Shown: one piece after another, positions 9,200 through 30,746 of the stretch
How positions within the stretch are numbered: position 1 is the first letter of the stretch
How the letters are laid out: each line of letters opens with the position of its first letter
From: Arcobacter arenosus
GTDB taxonomy: Bacteria > Campylobacterota > Campylobacteria > Campylobacterales > Arcobacteraceae
Reading direction: 5' to 3'
Assembly (NCBI RefSeq): GCF_005771535.1
Contig: NZ_VANU01000008.1
Location: forward strand, 39,826 to 103,825
Length of the DNA stretch: 64,000 bases
Position numbers and translations under genes: made by a program
The notes under the pieces: generated by a model
The model's database searches: none
The model's input: the letters and a program-made list of their open reading frames with translations, nothing else
Told to the model about the DNA's origin: nothing

Positions 9200-10417
9200 A
9201 TGATAAATGTTATTGGAGGATTCTATAAAGAATTATGTTTATATCCTGAATGGGATTATAATTATGGATCTGGTGGCAGAGCATCTGCTATTTTATCTAG
9301 TTTAGGGGCAGAGGTATGTTTTCATTCTTATGTCCATAAAGAAAAAGAAAAAGAATTTAAATATTTTTCAAAGACCTTTAGAATAAAAACAAATACCTTT
9401 TCTTCCTCAGAAATGATTAATTTTGAATATTATCATTCTTTATCAGCACCAAATATACATACACTAAATAATCCTATTGAAACACAAGTTCAAATGAATA
9501 TAAAAGAGGATATTGTAATTTGTTATGGAATGATGGAGTCACTAAATCCTATAGTCAATGCAAATTATTTAATTTATGATCCACAATCAGAGAATAATCC
9601 GTCATTGATTACAGAAAATGGTTCTACTTTTAATCATTTGGCAATTGTTATGAATGTAGAAGAAGCAAAAAAATTTACTAAAAAAGAAAATATTGATTTG
9701 ATTGTAAAAGATTTATTTGAAAAAACACATCAATTGGAAGTTTTAATTTTAAAAGATGGTCCGTTTGGTGCATATTTATTTCATGATGATAAATACTTTC
9801 ATATTGATGCATATGAGACGGAAAATGTTTTTAAAATAGGCTCAGGTGATGTTTTTGTTGCAGTATTTGGATATTTATGGGCAAAAGAAAAAATTGAACC
9901 TACTACAGCTGCACAAAAGGCTTCTTTAGCAACAGCATTATATTGTAATGACCAAGTTTTACAGATAAAAAGAGAATCTTTAAATAATTTAGGTTTATTT
10001 AAAAAGGTAGGAATAGATAAAACTAAATTTGATAAAAAAATTTATTTAGCAGGTCCTTTTTTTACTATGGCAGATCGTTGGCTAATAGAAGAAGCAAAGT
10101 TTCAGCTTGAAAAGTTTGGAGCAAATGTTTTCTCACCTTTACATGATGTTGGATATGGAAAGTCTGATACAGTAGCAAAAGAAGATTTGAAAGGTGTAGA
10201 TGAATCTAATATTTTATATGCAGTACTTAATGACTATGATCCTGGTACTATTTTTGAAGTGGGTTATGCTATTTCTAAAGGGATACCTGTCGTAATATTT
10301 ATAGAAAATAAAACTCCTATCAATATGACGATGTTTGAAGGTTCAGGTTGTATTATAGAAAGTGATTTTGCTACTTCAATATATAAAGTAATTTGGGAAG
10401 TTACTAGAACAAAATGA
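9200..10417 (+). CDS. PfkB-like kinase fused to nucleoside 2-deoxyribosyltransferase
   Basis: The 405-residue protein has two domains. Residues 1-265 resemble the PfkB/ribokinase family: a GSGGRA glycine stretch near residue 24 and a degenerate anion-hole signature KIGSGDVFVAVF near residue 212, where the family has DTTGAGDxF. Residues 278-405 are a nucleoside 2-deoxyribosyltransferase fold: KIYLAGPFF at its start and DPGTIFEVGYA near residue 347, which carries the catalytic Glu. These enzymes swap or hydrolyse bases on 2'-deoxynucleosides or nucleotides. The stop overlaps the QueC-like start (ATGA), so the two are coupled. The exact substrate is unknown; deoxyguanosine or 7-deazaguanine derivatives would fit the neighbours. 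Confidence 0.85.
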   Translation: MINVIGGFYKELCLYPEWDYNYGSGGRASAILSSLGAEVCFHSYVHKEKEKEFKYFSKTFRIKTNTFSSSEMINFEYYHSLSAPNIHTLNNPIETQVQMNIKEDIVICYGMMESLNPIVNANYLIYDPQSENNPSLITENGSTFNHLAIVMNVEEAKKFTKKENIDLIVKDLFEKTHQLEVLILKDGPFGAYLFHDDKYFHIDAYETENVFKIGSGDVFVAVFGYLWAKEKIEPTTAAQKASLATALYCNDQVLQIKRESLNNLGLFKKVGIDKTKFDKKIYLAGPFFTMADRWLIEEAKFQLEKFGANVFSPLHDVGYGKSDTVAKEDLKGVDESNILYAVLNDYDPGTIFEVGYAISKGIPVVIFIENKTPINMTMFEGSGCIIESDFATSIYKVIWEVTRTK

Positions 10418-11019
10418 CAGCTTTACTTTTATCTGGAGGAATGGATTCAATTTCAATTTTATACTGGAAAAAACCTGATATAGCATTAACTATTGATTAT
10501 GGTCAAAATTGTGCTAAAGCAGAAATTAATGCTGCTGAATATGCATGTAAAATATTAAATATAAAACATTATGTATTGAGTATTAATTGTGCTGAATTAG
10601 GATCTGGTGATTTGTCTAAAAATCTAACTACTAATGAGTACGCACCACATAGTGATTGGTGGCCTTATCGAAATCAACTTTTAATTACATTTGCTGCAAT
10701 GTACTTACTTAAATTTAAAGTTAAAAAGATTTTAATTGGCTCTTTAAAGCCTGATGAACAATTTAAAGATGGTACAGATAAATTTACAAAACTTATAAGT
10801 GAATTAATATCTTTTCAAGAAGGTGGAATTATAGTAGAAGCACCAGCTATTAATATGACAGCAATGGAACTTATAGAAAAATCTAAAATACCTAAATCTA
10901 TATTGTTTTGTGCTCATTCTTGCCATAAAAAGAATATCCCATGTGGAAATTGTAGAGGATGTAATAAATTTATTAGAATATTTGATAAATTAGAAGAATC
11001 TAAAAAGGAAAACTTATGA
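10414..11019 (+). CDS. QueC-like 7-deazaguanine PP-loop enzyme
   Basis: The 201-residue protein begins with the PP-loop SGGMDS (residues 7-12) that binds ATP, has the QueC-like WWPYRNQLL motif, and ends with a four-cysteine zinc site (SCHKKNIPCGNCRGC). Housekeeping QueC converts 7-carboxy-7-deazaguanine to preQ0. Here it is embedded between a deoxyribosyltransferase and a dGTPase with 4-bp overlaps on both sides (ATGA at 10414 and 11016), not with queuosine genes. QueC homologues in Qat and type IV CBASS defence are specialised for modifying a partner protein. A defence role here is an inference from context. Confidence 0.88.
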   Translation: MTALLLSGGMDSISILYWKKPDIALTIDYGQNCAKAEINAAEYACKILNIKHYVLSINCAELGSGDLSKNLTTNEYAPHSDWWPYRNQLLITFAAMYLLKFKVKKILIGSLKPDEQFKDGTDKFTKLISELISFQEGGIIVEAPAINMTAMELIEKSKIPKSILFCAHSCHKKNIPCGNCRGCNKFIRIFDKLEESKKENL

Positions 11020-12497
11020 TTGATTATAGAAAAAAAATAACTTGTAATCGGAAATATCAAAGAAGTGTTAGTAGTGATATTGATTTAGCCACAGAAAGTA
11101 ATAGAGGAAGAATTGTGAATTCTCCTGCTGTTAGAAGACTTCAGCAAAAAACACAAGTTTTCCCTTTAGAAATTAATGCAGCTGTTAGAAGTAGGTTAAC
11201 TCATTCCTTAGAGGTTCAACAAACAGCTAGATATATTTCAAAAACTATTCTTAAAGAGTTAAAGAAAAATAATAAGCTTAAAAAATATAATTTACAAGGC
11301 TTAGAAGAAGCCTTTATTTCAACTTCAGAAATGGCAAGTTTAATGCATGATATAGGAAATCCTCCTTTTGGTCATTTTGGTGAATTAGCAATAAATGTTT
11401 GGATGAAATCAAAAGGAATAAAATGTTTTAACAAAGCTTTAAACATAAAACAAAATTCTTTACTTGAACCAGAAGTAAAAGTATTAAAAAAGAAACTAGA
11501 AAAGGATATATGTAATTTTGAGGGAAATGCTCAAGGAGTTAGAATAGTCCATAATCTACAAAGTTTAAATTTGACTTATAGTCAAATCGCTTCAATTTTA
11601 AAATATACTAGAGTTGCTTATGAGAATAAGCCAAATAATAGTTCTCCTTTTAGTTACTTAAAGAAAAAACCTGGATTCTATTATAGTGAAGAAGAGTTTG
11701 TTCAAGAAGTATGTACAGAATTGAAAATGAAAAATGGTTACAGATTTCCTCTCACTTATATAATGGAAGCTGCAGATGATATTTCTTATGGTATAGCAGA
11801 TTTAGAAGATGCTGTTGATAAAGGTATTTTATCCTTGAAAAAATTGTATGAAACAATTATACAAGAAGCTTCAAAAGAAGTATATGAAGGTAAGGGTATA
11901 TATATTAAGTGTATAGCAGAAGAAAATTATCAAAAAGCAAAAAAAGTAAAAAGATTAAAAGTTAATACTTTTATCATAAATTTTAGAACACAGTTAGTTA
12001 ATGAACTTGTACCATATGCAGCAAAGGTTTTTTTAGAAAATCATAAGGATATCTATAACGGATGTTTTAATAAGGCATTATTAGAAGATAATAGTAAATA
12101 TCATATTGCATTAAAAGTATTAAAAAATGTTGCATTTAAACATGTTTTTAGCGATGATGAAGTTGAGTTACTTGAACTTAAAGGTAATTCTTCAATTAGA
12201 GGATTATTAGATTGCTATAAACCATTGTTAACTTTACCAAATAAAAAATTTTTATGTCTAATTAATGGTGAAAAAAATGATACACCAATTGAATCTAGAC
12301 TTTTTAAACGTTTATCAAATAAACATATCAGTTCTTATGAAAAAGTTATAGATGAACTAAATAAGAAAAACATTAAAGGATTTAAATTTAAAATTCTTGA
12401 ATGGTATTATAGAGGGCGTTTATTGATAGATTTTATAAGTGGTATGACTGATGAATATGCAATAAAAGAATTTCAAGAATTATCAGCAATAAAATAA
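11016..12497 (+). CDS. dgt: Dgt-type deoxyguanosine triphosphate triphosphohydrolase
   Basis: The 493-residue HD-domain protein follows the E. coli Dgt pattern closely: RGRIVNSPAVRRLQQKTQVFPLE near residue 30, RLTHSLEVQQ with metal ligand His63, LMHDIGNPPFGHFGE with His111-Asp112, and a third motif AADDISYGIADLEDA. Dgt cleaves dGTP to deoxyguanosine and triphosphate; related enzymes protect bacteria by depleting dNTPs during phage infection. It is the last gene of the four-gene unit, overlapping the QueC-like gene by 4 bp. It could be a housekeeping Dgt, but its tight coupling to a QueC homologue and a deoxyribosyltransferase argues for a dedicated role. Confidence 0.92.
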   Translation: MIDYRKKITCNRKYQRSVSSDIDLATESNRGRIVNSPAVRRLQQKTQVFPLEINAAVRSRLTHSLEVQQTARYISKTILKELKKNNKLKKYNLQGLEEAFISTSEMASLMHDIGNPPFGHFGELAINVWMKSKGIKCFNKALNIKQNSLLEPEVKVLKKKLEKDICNFEGNAQGVRIVHNLQSLNLTYSQIASILKYTRVAYENKPNNSSPFSYLKKKPGFYYSEEEFVQEVCTELKMKNGYRFPLTYIMEAADDISYGIADLEDAVDKGILSLKKLYETIIQEASKEVYEGKGIYIKCIAEENYQKAKKVKRLKVNTFIINFRTQLVNELVPYAAKVFLENHKDIYNGCFNKALLEDNSKYHIALKVLKNVAFKHVFSDDEVELLELKGNSSIRGLLDCYKPLLTLPNKKFLCLINGEKNDTPIESRLFKRLSNKHISSYEKVIDELNKKNIKGFKFKILEWYYRGRLLIDFISGMTDEYAIKEFQELSAIK

Positions 12498-12670
12498 AGG
12501 ATTTATAAGTGAAATTAAATAATATAGAATTATTTAAACTTTTAAAAAAATAACACCCCTGAGGATGAATCTCCACTTTTACTAAGGAATGTGGTGGTCA
12601 ATAGATAACAATAATTTTTTTAAATTAAATAGATTTAGATATTGCAAAGTGTAATATTTTTAAACAAGTA
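12498..12670 (+). other. Intergenic region after dgt with a 14-codon micro-frame
   Basis: A GTG-initiated frame at 12509-12553 (MKLNNIELFKLLKK) sits behind AAAGG and may be a short peptide or the remnant of a lost fifth gene. Bases 12553-12600 are less AT-rich and contain CCAC...GTGG, a weak hairpin. No larger gene is present. Confidence 0.35.
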
Positions 12671-12777
12671 TATTTTTTAATGTTATTATTTATGATGATT
12701 TTTTAGATATAAAAAACCCAAGCTTAAACTCAAAGGTTTAAGTCTTACTGGGTGTCGTGACAAAATTATATAAAAAT
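12671..12777 (+). repeat. Repeat copy 1 carrying the putative ncRNA (copy 2 at 14989-15097)
   Basis: Bases 12671-12777 are nearly identical to 14989-15097, including an AT-rich upstream part with TATTTTTTAATGTTATTATTT that probably holds the promoter, the hairpin core, and the tail CAAAATTATATAAAAAT. The copies are in the same orientation about 2.3 kb apart and differ by a few bases and small indels. Confidence 0.93.
12717..12761 (+). ncRNA. Structured RNA upstream of HEPN gene (abiF-RNA-like), copy 1
   Basis: The 45-nt core has a long hairpin: outer CCCA pairs with TGGG, inner CTTAAAC pairs with GTTTAAG around the loop TCAAAG. It ends with GTCGTGAC, which could form a small hairpin or a pseudoknot. 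It lies 32 bp before the HEPN/Abi gene. Conserved structured RNAs next to Abi_2/AbiF genes are a known class (the abiF RNA motif); I assign it on position and structure, not by a covariance-model match. Read on the minus strand, the hairpin is followed by a T run, so a terminator role in that direction is an alternative. Confidence 0.6.
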
Positions 12778-12793
12778 AGTAAGGATATGTCAA

Positions 12794-13375
12794 GTGAAAG
12801 ATGAAATTAAATCTAGATTTATCAGTAATATTCGACTTGAATCCTATAAAGATTTTGTTGAATACAAACAAAATATAAAACACTCTGAAGAATACTATAT
12901 ATTATTATCTATATTTGAAATTAGTTTAAGAAACTCTATCAATCATTATTTCCAAAAAAAGATTTCAAAAGATTGGTTCGAATCTAATATTCTACACACT
13001 GACACACAACAAAGAATAAATGAATCAAAAAATAAAATAAAACAAAGAAAAGAAGAAATAACTCATGATAAACTCATAGCTGAACTTCCTTTTGGTTTTT
13101 GGACTTCTTTGTTTAGAAAATCATACTCTAATCTATTTAGAATAAAAGATATAAAATATATTTTTCCTAATATGCCAAATAAAGATGAAAAACTCATAAC
13201 TAGGCAAATATTAGATAAAGAATTAAATAAAATAAGAAAATTTAGAAATAGAATATTTCACTATGAAAAGATAATTAATAAAAAAGAATATAAAAATATA
13301 AAAGAAGAAATTGAATTGTTATTATTATATTTTGATGAAGAGATATATTTATTTTCAAAAGAATTGATTGATTAA
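12794..13375 (+). CDS. Abi_2/AbiF-like HEPN-domain protein
   Basis: The 193-residue protein is alpha-helical and Lys/Ile-rich. It has the Abi_2-type signature LPFGFWTSLFRKSYS near residue 97 and a HEPN ribonuclease motif R-x4-H (RNRIFH, Arg151 to His156). Such proteins are RNA-cleaving abortive-infection toxins held in check by, or working with, a neighbouring structured RNA. The start is a GTG behind AAGGA (12781-12785). The structured RNA lies just upstream and another hairpin just downstream, with no protein antitoxin adjacent. The family assignment rests on motifs; at 193 residues it is short for Abi_2. Confidence 0.72.
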   Translation: MKDEIKSRFISNIRLESYKDFVEYKQNIKHSEEYYILLSIFEISLRNSINHYFQKKISKDWFESNILHTDTQQRINESKNKIKQRKEEITHDKLIAELPFGFWTSLFRKSYSNLFRIKDIKYIFPNMPNKDEKLITRQILDKELNKIRKFRNRIFHYEKIINKKEYKNIKEEIELLLLYFDEEIYLFSKELID

Positions 13376-13400
13376 CCCCATCAAAAAGATGGGTCGTCCC
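13376..13400 (+). other. Hairpin after HEPN gene
   Basis: CCCATC-AAAAA-GATGGG begins immediately after the stop codon and is followed by TCGTCCC, which can pair with the same GGG as an alternative. There is no T run, so it is not a standard terminator. GGGTCGT resembles the GGGTGTCGT end of the upstream RNA. Confidence 0.5.
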
Positions 13401-13469
13401 GTAGGAATTTAGAATATGATTATAACACAAATTATAAATAAATGCAACAACAAATAAAGGTAAAATAAA

Positions 13470-14957
13470 ATGAACCTATCTAAATCCCTCTACACAAAAG
13501 GAATCCAATGCCCCAAAGCACTTTGGCTTAAAAAATACAAGTCAAGTGTTTTAACACCACCAGATGAGGCTGCCCTTTCAGTATTTGAAACAGGGAATAT
13601 AGTAGGTGATTTAGCTTGCCAGCTTTTTCCATATGGGAAAGAAGTACCATACACTACAAACCCAAATAATTATATAGAGATGATAGCTACTACAAAAGAG
13701 TGGCTAAAAGAAGGTGTATCAAATATCTACGAAGCTACTTTTAACTATGAGGGCATACTTATCATGGTAGATATTTTAAAAGTAGAAGATGATGGTGTAT
13801 CTATCTATGAGGTTAAAAGTTCAACTGAGGTAAAAGATATTTATCTTCATGATGTATCTATTCAGTATTATGTTTTACAAAACTTAGGCTTTAGTATAAA
13901 AAGTGCAAGTGTAGTACATATAAACAATGAGTATGTAAGAGGTGAGAGTTTAGAACTAGACAAACTATTTAAAATAGTTGATGTCACAAGCGAAGTGCAA
14001 AACCTACAGCCAAATATCCCAATCATATTAAAAGAGTTTGAAACTTATCTTGAAGATAAAGAAAATGAGCCAGATATAGATATAGGAAAACATTGTAACA
14101 AACCTTATGAATGTGAAGCTAAAAACTATTGTTGGAAAGTTCAAAGACAAATTCCAGATTATTCTATATTTAATATTTTCAATCTAGGAAGTAAAAAACA
14201 AATTGAATTATACAATCAAGGTATTATAGATATAGAAGATATCCCAGAAGATTTTGATATGACTGCAAATCAAGCTCAAGCAGTAAAAAACTACAAATCA
14301 AAAGCAAGTTACATAGACAAAGAAAATATCAAAGCCTTTTTAGAAAACCTCACATACCCAATCTATCACTTAGACTTTGAAACCTACCAACAAGCCATAC
14401 CACAATATAAAAGTATAAAACCCTTCGAGCAAATACCTTTTCAATACTCACTTCATATAGAGTATGAAGATGGTAGGTTAATTCATAAAGAGTATTTGAG
14501 CCAAGATAGTGTAGATAGCAGATATGAGCTTGCACAAAAACTATGTGAAGATATCCCAAGTGATGTTACAGTATTGGCTTACAATATGAGCTTTGAAAAA
14601 GGTGTAATAAAAAGACTAGCCAACCTTTTTCCAGAACTCAACGCTCACTTACTAGCCATAAATGAAAACATACAAGACCTAATGACACCATTCCAAAAGA
14701 AATGGTATGTAACCCCAAGTATGCAAGGAAGCTACTCTATCAAGTATGTATTGCCAGCCTTAGTTCCAGAGTTTGAAAAAGCTTATAAAGAATTAGAAGG
14801 TGTACAAAACGGAAGCCAAGCTATGAATGCCTTTGCAAATCTATCAAAGCTTGATGGGCTAAGCAAAGAGAAGATGAGAACTTCACTTTTAGAGTATTGT
14901 AAACTTGATACTTTGGCTATGGTGAAGATATTGGAAGTTTTGAGAAATATTTCCTAG
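13470..14957 (+). CDS. DUF2779 protein: PD-(D/E)xK plus RNase H-like nuclease domains
   Basis: The 495-residue protein begins with the family's MNLSKSLYTKGIQCPKALWLKK signature. Residues 60-140 contain a Cas4/PD-(D/E)xK-like core (MVDIL...VSIYEVKSS). Cysteines near residues 210-224 (CNKPYECEAKNYC) are consistent with an iron-sulfur or zinc site. The C-terminal half starts with YHLDFETY near residue 296, a DEDD/RNase H-like exonuclease motif, with LAYNMSFEKG and LEYCKLDTLAM as later motifs. The activity is probably nucleolytic; the biological role of DUF2779 is not established. The flanking RNA repeats place it inside the accessory segment. Confidence 0.82.
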   Translation: MNLSKSLYTKGIQCPKALWLKKYKSSVLTPPDEAALSVFETGNIVGDLACQLFPYGKEVPYTTNPNNYIEMIATTKEWLKEGVSNIYEATFNYEGILIMVDILKVEDDGVSIYEVKSSTEVKDIYLHDVSIQYYVLQNLGFSIKSASVVHINNEYVRGESLELDKLFKIVDVTSEVQNLQPNIPIILKEFETYLEDKENEPDIDIGKHCNKPYECEAKNYCWKVQRQIPDYSIFNIFNLGSKKQIELYNQGIIDIEDIPEDFDMTANQAQAVKNYKSKASYIDKENIKAFLENLTYPIYHLDFETYQQAIPQYKSIKPFEQIPFQYSLHIEYEDGRLIHKEYLSQDSVDSRYELAQKLCEDIPSDVTVLAYNMSFEKGVIKRLANLFPELNAHLLAINENIQDLMTPFQKKWYVTPSMQGSYSIKYVLPALVPEFEKAYKELEGVQNGSQAMNAFANLSKLDGLSKEKMRTSLLEYCKLDTLAMVKILEVLRNIS

Positions 14958-14988
14958 TATTACAATCTGCAATATATTTAAATAAATA

Positions 14989-15097
14989 TATTTTTTAATG
15001 TTATTATTTTTAATGATTTTTTTGGCATAAAAAAAACCCAAGCTTAAACTCAAAGGTTTAAGTCTTACTGGGCGTCGTGACAAAATTATATAAAAAT
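14989..15097 (+). repeat. Repeat copy 2 carrying the putative ncRNA
   Basis: This is the second copy of the 12671-12777 repeat, including the AT-rich upstream element and the downstream tail. It is not followed by a HEPN gene but by an ORF6N-domain gene. Confidence 0.93.
15037..15081 (+). ncRNA. Structured RNA, orphan copy 2 (abiF-RNA-like)
   Basis: The 45-nt core equals copy 1 except GGGC for GGGT next to the terminal GTCGTGAC. The hairpin stem is unchanged. It lies 46 bp before the start of the ORF6N gene and 1.7 kb from the HEPN gene. It may be a solitary antitoxin-like RNA, a leftover from a second lost HEPN gene, or a leader regulating the ORF6N gene. Confidence 0.55.
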
Positions 15098-15127
15098 CAT
15101 TGGAATAAGTCAAATGAGGACTGTAAT

Positions 15128-16054
15128 ATGAATGAATTAGTAATTGATGAAGATATAAAAAATAAAATCTATACAATAAGAGATATGCAAGTTATGATTG
15201 ATAAAGACTTAGCGAAACTTTATGGTGTAGAAACAAAAGTATTTAATCAAGCAGTAAAAAGAAATATAGAAAGATTTCCTAAGGAGTTCCGTTTTCAGCT
15301 TACTGAAGATGAATATCAAAATTGGAGGTCACAAATTGTGACCTCAAGTTTAAATGATGCTTTAAGGTCACAAAATGTGACCTTAGAAAGTCAAAGAGGA
15401 AAACATAGGAAATATTTACCTTATGTATTTACAGAGCAGGGTGTTTCTATGCTTTCAGCAGTACTTAAAAGTGATAAAGCTATTCAGACAAGTATCCATA
15501 TTATAAATAGTTTTGTTAAGATGAGACAATTTTTGTCACACAGTGGTGATGTATTTAAACGACTAGAATTAGTTGAAAAAAGGCAAATATCTTATGAGGT
15601 TAAAACAGATGAAAAATTTGAAAAACTATTTAATGCTTTAGAAGATAAATCATTAAAACCAAAACAAGGTATCTTTTACGATGGAGAGATGTTTGATGCC
15701 TATACTTTTGTATCTGATTTAATAAGAAGTGCTAAAAGTAAAATAATACTTATAGATAACTATGTTGATGATAGTGTCTTAACTCTATTTTCAAAAAATC
15801 AAAATATAGATGTAATTATATATACTAAAAATATCTCAAAACAACTAAATCTTGACCTTAAAAAATACAATTCTCAATATAAAAAAATTGAGATAAAAAA
15901 GTTTGAAAACTCACACGATAGATTTTTGATAGTGGATGAAAAAGAACTTTTTCATCTTGGAGCTAGTTTGAAGGACTTGGGTAAAAAATGGTTTGCTTTT
16001 TCAAAGATGGATTTAAAAAGTCTTGATGTCTTAAAAAGATTAGAATCGATATAA
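15128..16054 (+). CDS. ORF6N-domain protein with PLD-like C-terminal region
   Basis: The 308-residue protein has an ORF6N/KilA-N-type DNA-binding domain at residues 10-110 (IYTIRDMQVMIDKDLAKLYGV, KYLPYVFTEQGVSML). The C-terminal half resembles a phospholipase-D-like fold (ILIDNYVDDSVLTLF; HDRFLIVDEKELFHLGASL). ORF6N proteins are common in phages and mobile islands and are usually regulators. The ATG at 15128 was chosen because it follows GAGGA and the domain starts there; an upstream GTG would lie inside the RNA element. The coding region contains two perfect palindromes at 15325-15385. Confidence 0.82.
   Translation: MNELVIDEDIKNKIYTIRDMQVMIDKDLAKLYGVETKVFNQAVKRNIERFPKEFRFQLTEDEYQNWRSQIVTSSLNDALRSQNVTLESQRGKHRKYLPYVFTEQGVSMLSAVLKSDKAIQTSIHIINSFVKMRQFLSHSGDVFKRLELVEKRQISYEVKTDEKFEKLFNALEDKSLKPKQGIFYDGEMFDAYTFVSDLIRSAKSKIILIDNYVDDSVLTLFSKNQNIDVIIYTKNISKQLNLDLKKYNSQYKKIEIKKFENSHDRFLIVDEKELFHLGASLKDLGKKWFAFSKMDLKSLDVLKRLESI
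15325..15385 (+). repeat. Two perfect palindromes inside the ORF6N gene
   Basis: Palindrome 1 (15325-15345) has arms GAGGTCACA / TGTGACCTC around AAT; palindrome 2 (15363-15385) has arms TAAGGTCACA / TGTGACCTTA around AAA. Their centres are 39 bp (13 codons) apart, and they encode the repeated residues RSQ-x-VT. They could be operator sites for the protein itself or a target for sequence exchange. Confidence 0.9.
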
Positions 16055-30647: not shown

Positions 30648-30746
30648 GGGGGGTATGTGACCCTGGTGGGCACCACAGGCTTCAACCCTGATTGGCGGTT
30701 TATGTGTATACGCCGCGGTAGGTTCGATTCCTACACCTTCTCGCCA
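30648..30746 (+). tRNA. selC: tRNA-Sec (anticodon UCA)
   Basis: The roughly 99-nt gene has the long form expected of tRNA-Sec. The anticodon stem CAGG/CCTG closes CTTCAAC with anticodon TCA, which reads UGA. The extra arm is long, with stem GGCG/CGCC; the T arm is GTAGG-TTCGATT-CCTAC, followed by ACCTTCTC and GCCA. The best acceptor pairing is GGGGGGT with ACCTTCT (three G-T pairs); the eighth outer pair would be T-C, so the exact 5' base (30647 or 30648) is uncertain. It is divergent from selA. Confidence 0.93.

What the first reader, a model, noticed from the sequence alone, without database searches (positions are those of the whole stretch)
12671..13375. HEPN (AbiF-like) protein with an adjacent structured RNA
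A short protein with R-x4-H and an Abi_2-like LPFGFW motif follows a 45-nt hairpin-plus-GTCGTGAC RNA by 32 bp. HEPN-RNA pairs of the AbiF class are RNA-based toxin-antitoxin or defence systems and have been linked to the origin of Cas13; this example is small (193 residues).
Basis: partly seen in the sequence, partly recalled or inferred. Interest (0 to 1): 0.7.

Follow-up and report, generated by a model that had tools for sequence, protein, structure and literature searches.

The report
HEPN toxin with divergent small RNA
Next to a small gene that looks like an RNA-cutting bacterial toxin lies a tiny structured RNA gene that has travelled with it through evolution and, judging by its promoter, is read from the opposite DNA strand, so the pair is probably an RNA-controlled self-poisoning switch against viruses.

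Summary
The hairpin (12717-12752) and the 193-aa HEPN gene (12794-13375) are real and belong together. All 19 close HEPN genes, this one included (E<=1e-42), have the hairpin just upstream. Its stems are kept by compensatory changes (9 of 15 pairs, 48 cells; 0/500 shuffles reach the cells), and a model trained on one bacterial family found it at 6 of 6 held-out loci. The protein model's best PDB match is AbiF bound to its RNA (8VZ6, Z 11.0; next 5.0); by sequence it is PD-T4-5-like (19 of 19). The RNA is not Rfam abiF. And it is most likely read from the minus strand: a perfect TTGACA-17-TATAAT lies between hairpin and HEPN, its layout kept in 14 of 14 family loci. RNA copies not followed by a HEPN gene occur at 21 places, one in this window; no close HEPN gene lacks the RNA. 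Best reading: a HEPN RNase toxin restrained by a divergently transcribed RNA antitoxin. Expression, binding and toxicity are untested.

The parts
12794..13375 (+). HEPN gene, 193 aa, GTG start; R151-N152-x3-H156 active-site motif; AbiF-like fold, PD-T4-5-like sequence
12781..12785 (+). candidate ribosome-binding site AAGGA of the HEPN gene
   Evidence: read; not tested
12709..12758 (-). predicted small RNA gene: start near 12758, bulged hairpin 12752-12717, U-run at 12716-12711
   Evidence: structure; strand; ends inferred from promoter and U-run; fold
12765..12793 (-). promoter of the small RNA, TTGACA-17-TATAAT, 12 of 12 consensus letters
12661..12689 (+). candidate promoter for the HEPN mRNA, TAAACA-17-TATTAT with TG before the -10 (9 of 12); sites this good are as common in shuffles
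   Evidence: weak
12640..12797 (.). first copy of the duplicated block that holds RNA gene and promoters
14958..15117 (.). second copy of the block, directly after the DUF2779 gene
15029..15078 (-). second RNA copy (one mismatch in the hairpin), not followed by a HEPN gene
15085..15113 (-). promoter of the second RNA copy, TTGACT-17-TATAAT (11 of 12)

Best explanation
The locus is an RNA-restrained HEPN toxin module of the AbiF / PD-T4-5 branch. The HEPN protein is an RNase toxin, probably a dimer like AbiF. A strong consensus promoter between the two genes constantly makes a roughly 48-nt structured RNA from the opposite strand, away from the toxin gene. That RNA binds the HEPN protein and keeps it inactive, as AbiF is held by its ncRNA. 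When supply of the RNA stops, for example when a phage shuts off host transcription, the toxin is freed, cuts RNA and aborts infection. Shown: both genes, the RNA's conserved structure, its fixed linkage to this HEPN clade, the AbiF-like fold. Well supported, not proven: transcription from the minus strand (about 0.85). Inferred: RNase activity, direct RNA-protein inhibition, phage trigger.
For: RNA structure: 90.7% of cells paired, 9 of 15 pairs with changes on both sides, 48 such cells, 0/500 shuffles for paired cells, double-change cells and covariation score; hold-out model found 6 of 6 HEPN loci, best of 40 controls E 0.44. Linkage: 19 of 19 close HEPN genes have the RNA, while 21 RNA places are not followed by HEPN; one truncated HEPN beside an intact RNA (L079) and one eroded HEPN remnant (L095): the loss pattern expected if the RNA is the antitoxin. 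Fold: PbAbiF-ncRNA 8VZ6 Z 11.0 over 177 of 192 residues, next 5.0. Active site invariant. Strand. Precedent: AbiF of C. difficile is toxic, needs the matching R and H, and is neutralised by direct RNA binding (PMC12373285, abstract and sections 6, 7, 12). PD-T4-5 gives abortive defence, is called TA-like and a distant relative of AbiF/D (PMC9519451, passages and one section).
Against: No transcript, toxicity, binding or phage data. The RNA is unlike abiF RNA, so the AbiF mechanism is carried over by protein similarity alone. In one search two measures are weak: pairs with double change 4/500 and pair types 420/500. Strand: over all pairs, wobble cells favour plus (40 G.U against 22 A.C), because two helix-end pairs are G.U on plus; only pairs inside helices favour minus (16 against 1, 12 of them at one pair). 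Outside the family the -35 is weak in L069-L072 (p 0.13-0.51) and the U-run is missing in 6 of 20 loci. A 580-bp gene is a larger target for loss than a 45-nt RNA, which alone could give the asymmetry. Z under about 13 can be a common arrangement for helical proteins (note).
Confidence: 0.58

Rival explanations
1. Antisense (type I-like) control: the minus-strand RNA pairs with the leader of a HEPN mRNA that starts further left and reads across the hairpin, lowering toxin translation or mRNA life. The protein itself is not bound.
For: By position the minus RNA is fully complementary to any HEPN mRNA that starts left of it; a weak plus promoter with TG-extended -10 lies at 12661-12689, and in L040, L042 and L071 the module lies between hsdM and hsdS, where read-through would give such an mRNA.
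Against: Stem letters change freely while pairing and a few bulge and loop letters are kept, which points to shape recognition; the fold is that of a protein that binds its RNA; the RNA ends about 23 nt before the ribosome-binding site.
Confidence: 0.22
2. Sense leader RNA: the hairpin is the 5' part of the HEPN transcript and works as in AbiF of C. difficile.
For: AbiF's RNA is a sense-strand leader mapped by RACE (PMC12373285, section 7); a weak plus promoter exists at 12661-12689; two helix-end pairs and the overall wobble total favour plus.
Against: Perfect minus promoter with fixed spacer and distance in 14 of 14 family loci; U-run of four or more after the hairpin on minus in 14 of 20 loci against 0 of 20 on plus; 0 of 20 loci have a plus promoter with -10 4-18 nt left of the hairpin better than shuffles at p<0.1 (this test does not reach the site at 12661-12689). 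abiF loci of the same bacterial family have T5 on the sense side in 5 of 5.
Confidence: 0.08
3. The element is a widespread regulatory RNA or promoter cassette for neighbouring defence genes, and HEPN is only one of its users (or its processing enzyme).
For: RNA copies stand before other genes: ORF6N in this window and in L087, a CAP12-type TIR gene between hsdR and hsdS in L111 and, by ORF reading, L113, hsdS in L101, an AAA-ATPase-like gene in L115 and, by ORF reading, L117.
Against: 19 of 19 close HEPN genes have it; RNA class follows the HEPN tree (5 changes, shuffles 25.1); the copies' neighbours are mostly unrelated to each other; L095 and L079 show HEPN decay beside a kept RNA.
Confidence: 0.1

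Closest known systems
AbiF and its ncRNA (Pfam Abi_2 PF07751; Rfam RF03085; PbAbiF structure 8VZ6; C. difficile AbiF-RCd22)
   Same: HEPN fold over nearly the whole chain, conserved R and H, one structured RNA beside the gene, defence-gene surroundings
   Different: Shorter (193 aa; AbiF frames here 256-357 aa where intact); window protein below Abi_2 detection; RNA unrelated by model in both directions and most likely on the other strand
PD-T4-5 (PADLOC PDLC04038; Vassallo 2022, PMC9519451)
   Same: Profile match in 19 of 19 close genes; 193 aa HEPN of AbiF/D type
   Different: The passages seen report no RNA partner for PD-T4-5, and the original locus was not examined here
Abi2/AbiF/AbiD and jhp1408 HEPN families embedded in R-M operons (Anantharaman 2013, PMC3710099, passages seen)
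   Same: HEPN of the same group; found between hsdM and hsdS in three relatives
   Different: That table, as seen, gives no RNA for this group; whether this gene is of the jhp1408 family was not tested
Type I and type III toxin-antitoxin systems
   Same: RNA as presumed antitoxin: opposite-strand position as in type I, presumed direct binding of an RNase as in type III
   Different: Type I toxins are mostly small membrane peptides and type III antitoxins sense-strand repeats (both recalled); this would mix the two plans

Membership tests
Rfam RF03085 abiF RNA | Match to the abiF covariance model (gathering score 37 bits) | tested here: not met
   No abiF match at E<=10 in window 12480-13470, 12705-12765 or 19 related loci; positive control L058 45.2 bits
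Pfam Abi_2 (PF07751) | Profile match over the curated cut-off of 25.6 bits | tested here: not met
   Window protein: no match listed at E<=1. 7 of 19 close genes match at E<=0.01, best 3.1e-8; one of them, L043's gene, reaches 31.2 bits
AbiF fold | Whole-chain structural match to AbiF | tested here: met
   8vz6_A Z 11.0, rmsd 3.5, 177 of 192 residues, next entry 5.0; Foldseek alone had no hit at E<=0.001; profile comparison with AbiF proteins E 2.3e-4 but probability 45%
PD-T4-5 | Match to the PADLOC PD-T4-5 profile | tested here: met
   E 5.6e-16, 29-173 of 192 residues; 19 of 19 close genes match
PD-T4-5 | Defence against T4-like phages by abortive infection | not testable with these tools
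   Needs phage assays
HEPN RNases | Conserved R-x4-6-H | tested here: met
   R151 and H156 invariant in 27 of 27 aligned proteins
Type III toxin-antitoxin | Antitoxin RNA of tandem repeats in front of the toxin on the same strand | tested here: not met
   One hairpin at this gene, most likely on the opposite strand; the definition is recalled
Type III toxin-antitoxin | RNA neutralises the toxin by direct binding | not testable with these tools
   Needs binding and rescue assays
Type I toxin-antitoxin | Antisense RNA overlapping the toxin mRNA | tested here: inconclusive
   Fits only if the HEPN mRNA starts left of the RNA; a weak plus promoter is there, the true start is unknown

The most novel reading that the evidence does not exclude
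The PD-T4-5 branch of AbiF/Cas13-related HEPN RNases as a whole is controlled by small structured RNAs read from the opposite strand to the toxin gene, a layout not described for AbiF in the papers seen. The RNA partners differ by HEPN clade (three types seen here, none matched in Rfam), so the partner was exchanged or re-invented as these toxins diverged. Solitary copies of the RNA persist after toxin loss and may protect their hosts against incoming HEPN modules.
Probability: 0.35. Interest if true: 0.8.

Novelty: new variant of a known kind. Interest (0 to 1): 0.62.

Why it matters
HEPN-RNA pairs of the AbiF type are thought to lie at the root of Cas13. If a second, smaller branch that includes the phage-defence gene PD-T4-5 also carries dedicated RNAs, unrelated in sequence and read from the other strand, then the RNA partner has been exchanged or re-invented while these toxins evolved. 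It would also offer a mechanism for defence genes now listed without an antitoxin, and a direct test: does PD-T4-5 need a neighbouring small RNA? Solitary antitoxin RNAs would be natural anti-toxin genes.

Tried and rejected
Rfam: no credible match to this RNA (matches listed at E 0.67-10 apart from a tmRNA in L069 are unrelated or chance) or, at E<=1, to the second and third RNA classes in the 19 loci given. Genome-wide repeat: rejected; apart from the window's two copies the other 42 matches are short pieces with E>=0.0095. Viral contigs: 0 exact matches of the RNA pattern, 1 distant HEPN relative. Phage records: 7 HEPN relatives. Plasmids: 459 records with HEPN relatives, all under 60% identity; 8 were opened. 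Plasmid search with the DNA block: 1 chance match. PDB by sequence: nothing meaningful.

The plus-strand hairpin looks somewhat like abiF RNA (AAGC..CUCAA..GCU with a 3' bulge). That was my own early idea; I dropped it after models failed in both directions and the strand evidence turned. I had also first read the conserved ATTATA right of the hairpin as a plus-strand -10 of HEPN; the minus promoter replaced this.

Rows left out before counts: the second RNA of L040 is in A2 but not in A4, because MAFFT misaligned its longer loop; L068 was left out of A2-A4 as its hairpin equals L052's. In one search L047, L065 and L068 were not entered. L049 (E 3.9e-5) shows no R-x4-H context of this family and was not used. 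Five R1 hits weaker than E 1e-5 were not counted as RNA copies; three were opened: L105 and L106 look unrelated, L110 may be a decayed copy. The RNA classes 1-3 were assigned by me by eye.

Literature: searches showed no paper in this library that describes an RNA partner of PD-T4-5-like HEPNs (PD-T4-5 in 5 papers; with non-coding RNA and antitoxin in 0). Most subscription papers are not held; the primary paper on AbiF as Cas13 ancestor was not seen, only passages of a review (PMC12737573) and two passages of PMC12165695.

Full report
What is there. The ORF at 12794-13375 codes for 193 residues with R151-N152-x3-H156 and LPFGFW. Ten columns, these three residues among them, are invariant over 27 relatives from Campylobacterota, Gammaproteobacteria, Burkholderiales, Neisseriaceae, a cyanobacterium and a Bacteroidota plasmid. 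Upstream lies a hairpin at 12717-12752. A 158-nt block around it recurs at 14958-15117 with a one-mismatch hairpin, in front of an ORF6N gene that PADLOC scores as PDC-S05. No third full copy was found in the 3.13-Mb genome.

The RNA is real. HEPN relatives occur in 16 of 104 family genomes (E<=0.001) and 19 of 398 order genomes (E<=1e-8). Reading the DNA upstream of the close ones showed the same hairpin with changed but complementary stems. On alignment A2 (22 rows, 20 distinct) 90.7% of cells pair, 9 of 15 pairs have changes on both sides in 48 cells, and 0 of 500 shuffles reach the paired percentage, the double-change cells or the covariation score; pairs with a double change reach 4/500 and pair types 420/500. 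Sliding the partners by 1-3 columns leaves at most 12 double-change cells. As a hold-out, model R2 was built from 14 family loci only and run over 6 order-level loci with HEPN and 40 control loci. The six were its best hits (35-48.4 bits, E 9.9e-8 to 8.7e-12); the best control scored 13.1 bits, E 0.44. I had seen these six hairpins by eye before; one (L079) has a HEPN with an internal deletion.

Which strand. The promoter scan found one perfect sigma-70 site in the region, on minus, TTGACA-17-TATAAT at 12793-12765, between hairpin and HEPN; sites of 9 of 12 are as common as in shuffles. In all 14 family loci (window and L033-L045) a 10-12/12 match has spacer 17 and its -10 ends 12-13 nt from the hairpin. 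Of 20 loci of this RNA class 16 have p<=0.02 against letter shuffles, and 0 of 20 have a plus promoter with its -10 4-18 nt left of the hairpin at p<0.1 (relatedness is not corrected for, and this test does not reach the weak plus site at 12661-12689). Read on minus, the hairpin is followed within 14 nt by four or more U in 14 of 20 loci; on plus in 0 of 20; five abiF RNAs of the same bacterial family have T5 on the sense side, 5 of 5. Wobble pairs are mixed. Over all pairs plus has the more G.U (40 against 22 cells that would be G.U on minus, A4 and A10 together), owing to two pairs at helix ends. In pairs inside the helices it is 1 against 16 in favour of minus, 12 of the 16 at one pair. Outside the family the -35 is weak in L069-L072 (p 0.13-0.51). 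The predicted RNA runs from about 12758 to 12709, starts ACGAC, forms the bulged hairpin and ends in UUUUUU (fold).

The protein. AlphaFold2 on ten sequences gave pLDDT 90.3. Foldseek alone found nothing in the PDB at E<=0.001. VIA-align over Foldseek's candidates put PbAbiF bound to its ncRNA (8VZ6) first, Z 11.0, 177 of 192 residues, rmsd 3.5; then Cas13h1 5.0, Csm6 4.7 and a toxin-antitoxin structure (7bxo) 4.3. For helical proteins a Z under about 13 can be a common arrangement, but this match stands alone and spans the chain. By sequence: PADLOC PD-T4-5 in 19 of 19 close genes, Pfam Abi_2 in 7 of 19 but not in the window's, profile comparison with AbiF proteins E 2.3e-4 at 45% probability. 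On a tree the five AbiF proteins stand apart.

Not the abiF RNA. Rfam's abiF model does not match this RNA or its relatives at E<=10, yet in the same genome a true AbiF gene (PF07751, E 8e-56) has an abiF RNA at 45.2 bits. R1 gives 2.1 bits at that RNA. abiF RNA was found at 5 of 17 Abi_2 loci of this family, 4 over the gathering score, so AbiF proteins too must often have other or no partners.

Partners by clade. More distant PD-T4-5-like genes have other hairpins in the same place. Class 2 has outer stems such as CCUAGG, CCCAGG or CCCAGA around UCAUCA..GAGAGGA (L046, L048, L073, L074, plasmid loci L060, L062-L066). Class 3 has an extra CCCUACUU..CUUCGGG hairpin (L047, L075-L078, L080). No covariation count was made for these. 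In the 19 loci scanned none matched Rfam at E<=1. RNA and AbiF labels, assigned by me, need 5 changes on the HEPN tree where 4 is the least; shuffles give 25.1. A minus -10 box ends 11-12 nt from the hairpin in 8 of 9 class-2 loci, but only 5 of 9 minus promoters reach p<=0.05 and 3 of 9 loci have a plus promoter as good; in class 3 it is 1 of 5. Their strand is open.

RNA without toxin. In 104 family genomes R1 has 27 hits at E<2e-8: 14 beside the 14 close HEPN genes, 13 not followed by one. The order and phylum samples add 5 HEPN-linked places, 1 truncated HEPN (L079) and 8 more without HEPN (for the last two, L142 and L143, only 3 kb was read). In sum 19 of 19 HEPN genes with E<=1e-42 have the RNA and 21 RNA places are not followed by one; three of these are second copies in genomes that have the pair (this window, G091, G029). 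R1 was trained on most of the linked copies, so only the reverse count and the hold-out are independent. L095 keeps an eroded HEPN remnant. Seventeen solitary RNAs keep 92.9% of cells paired, though they were found by a model that rewards this. Their best minus promoter has its -10 at 11-14 nt in 10 of 20, and only 4 of 20 stand out from shuffles (at most 2/60). This is what toxin-first loss would leave, but a 580-bp gene is also a larger target than a 45-nt one.

Context. The module lies between hsdM and hsdS in L040, L042 and L071, next to hsdS in L045, after a BrxC gene in L070, a type ISP gene in L072 and an AbiF gene in L043. L101 has hsdM-RNA-hsdS without HEPN. In L111 the RNA lies between hsdR and a CAP12-type TIR gene followed by hsdS; L113 looks the same by ORF reading. 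HEPN genes of this group in R-M operons were noted in 2013 (PMC3710099, passages).

How it most likely works. A HEPN RNase toxin is held by a constantly made small RNA from a divergent consensus promoter; loss of supply frees it. Direct inhibition is preferred (0.58) because the fold is that of AbiF, which is neutralised by RNA binding (PMC12373285), and because RNA shape rather than letters is conserved. Antisense control is the main rival (0.22). Nothing here shows expression, toxicity, binding or phage defence.

Verdict. Observation confirmed; interpretation partly right (AbiF-type HEPN with an RNA), wrong on the RNA family and most likely on the strand. New variant of a known kind.

Noticed in passing
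window 14958-16054: Second RNA copy with an 11/12 minus promoter in front of an ORF6N gene (PDC-S05 in PADLOC; likely ATG at 15128). L087 of another genome has the same DUF2779-RNA-ORF6N order.
   Followed up: partly
L111 and L113, about 1501-2401: The RNA stands between a type I hsdR gene and a CAP12-type TIR gene followed by hsdS, with no HEPN gene; a TIR effector occupies the place HEPN has elsewhere.
   Followed up: partly
L046, L048, L060, L062-L066, L073, L074; L047, L075-L078, L080: Two further kinds of conserved hairpin upstream of other PD-T4-5-like HEPN genes, also on plasmids of Aeromonas, Enterobacter, Xanthomonas, Pseudomonas and E. coli; no Rfam match at E<=1.
   Followed up: partly
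L058 (G000:C3:357850-358401): The same genome has a true AbiF gene with a true abiF RNA on another contig.
   Followed up: yes
L043 263-2085: A true AbiF gene lies directly upstream of a small HEPN-RNA pair of the kind described here.
   Followed up: partly
L035, L036, L040: The module is flanked by repeated pieces of its neighbour: the start of the DUF2779 gene (L035, L036) or the end of hsdM (L040), as if inserted by recombination.
   Followed up: no
window 13377-13410: After the HEPN stop lies another small hairpin (CCCCATC..GATGGG) with GTCGTCCCGTAGGAATTT; L083 and L098 have it right after the RNA with no HEPN between.
   Followed up: no
L035-L038, about 40-100 nt left of the RNA: A further stem-like stretch with GACATYGGGAAAACG-like letters in several loci; possibly another small element.
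   Followed up: no
window 9200-12497: A sugar-kinase-like gene, a QueC-like gene and a dGTPase gene in a row upstream; could be a nucleotide-based defence cluster.
   Followed up: no
window 30648-30742: Selenocysteine tRNA (Rfam RF01852, 49.4 bits).
   Followed up: no
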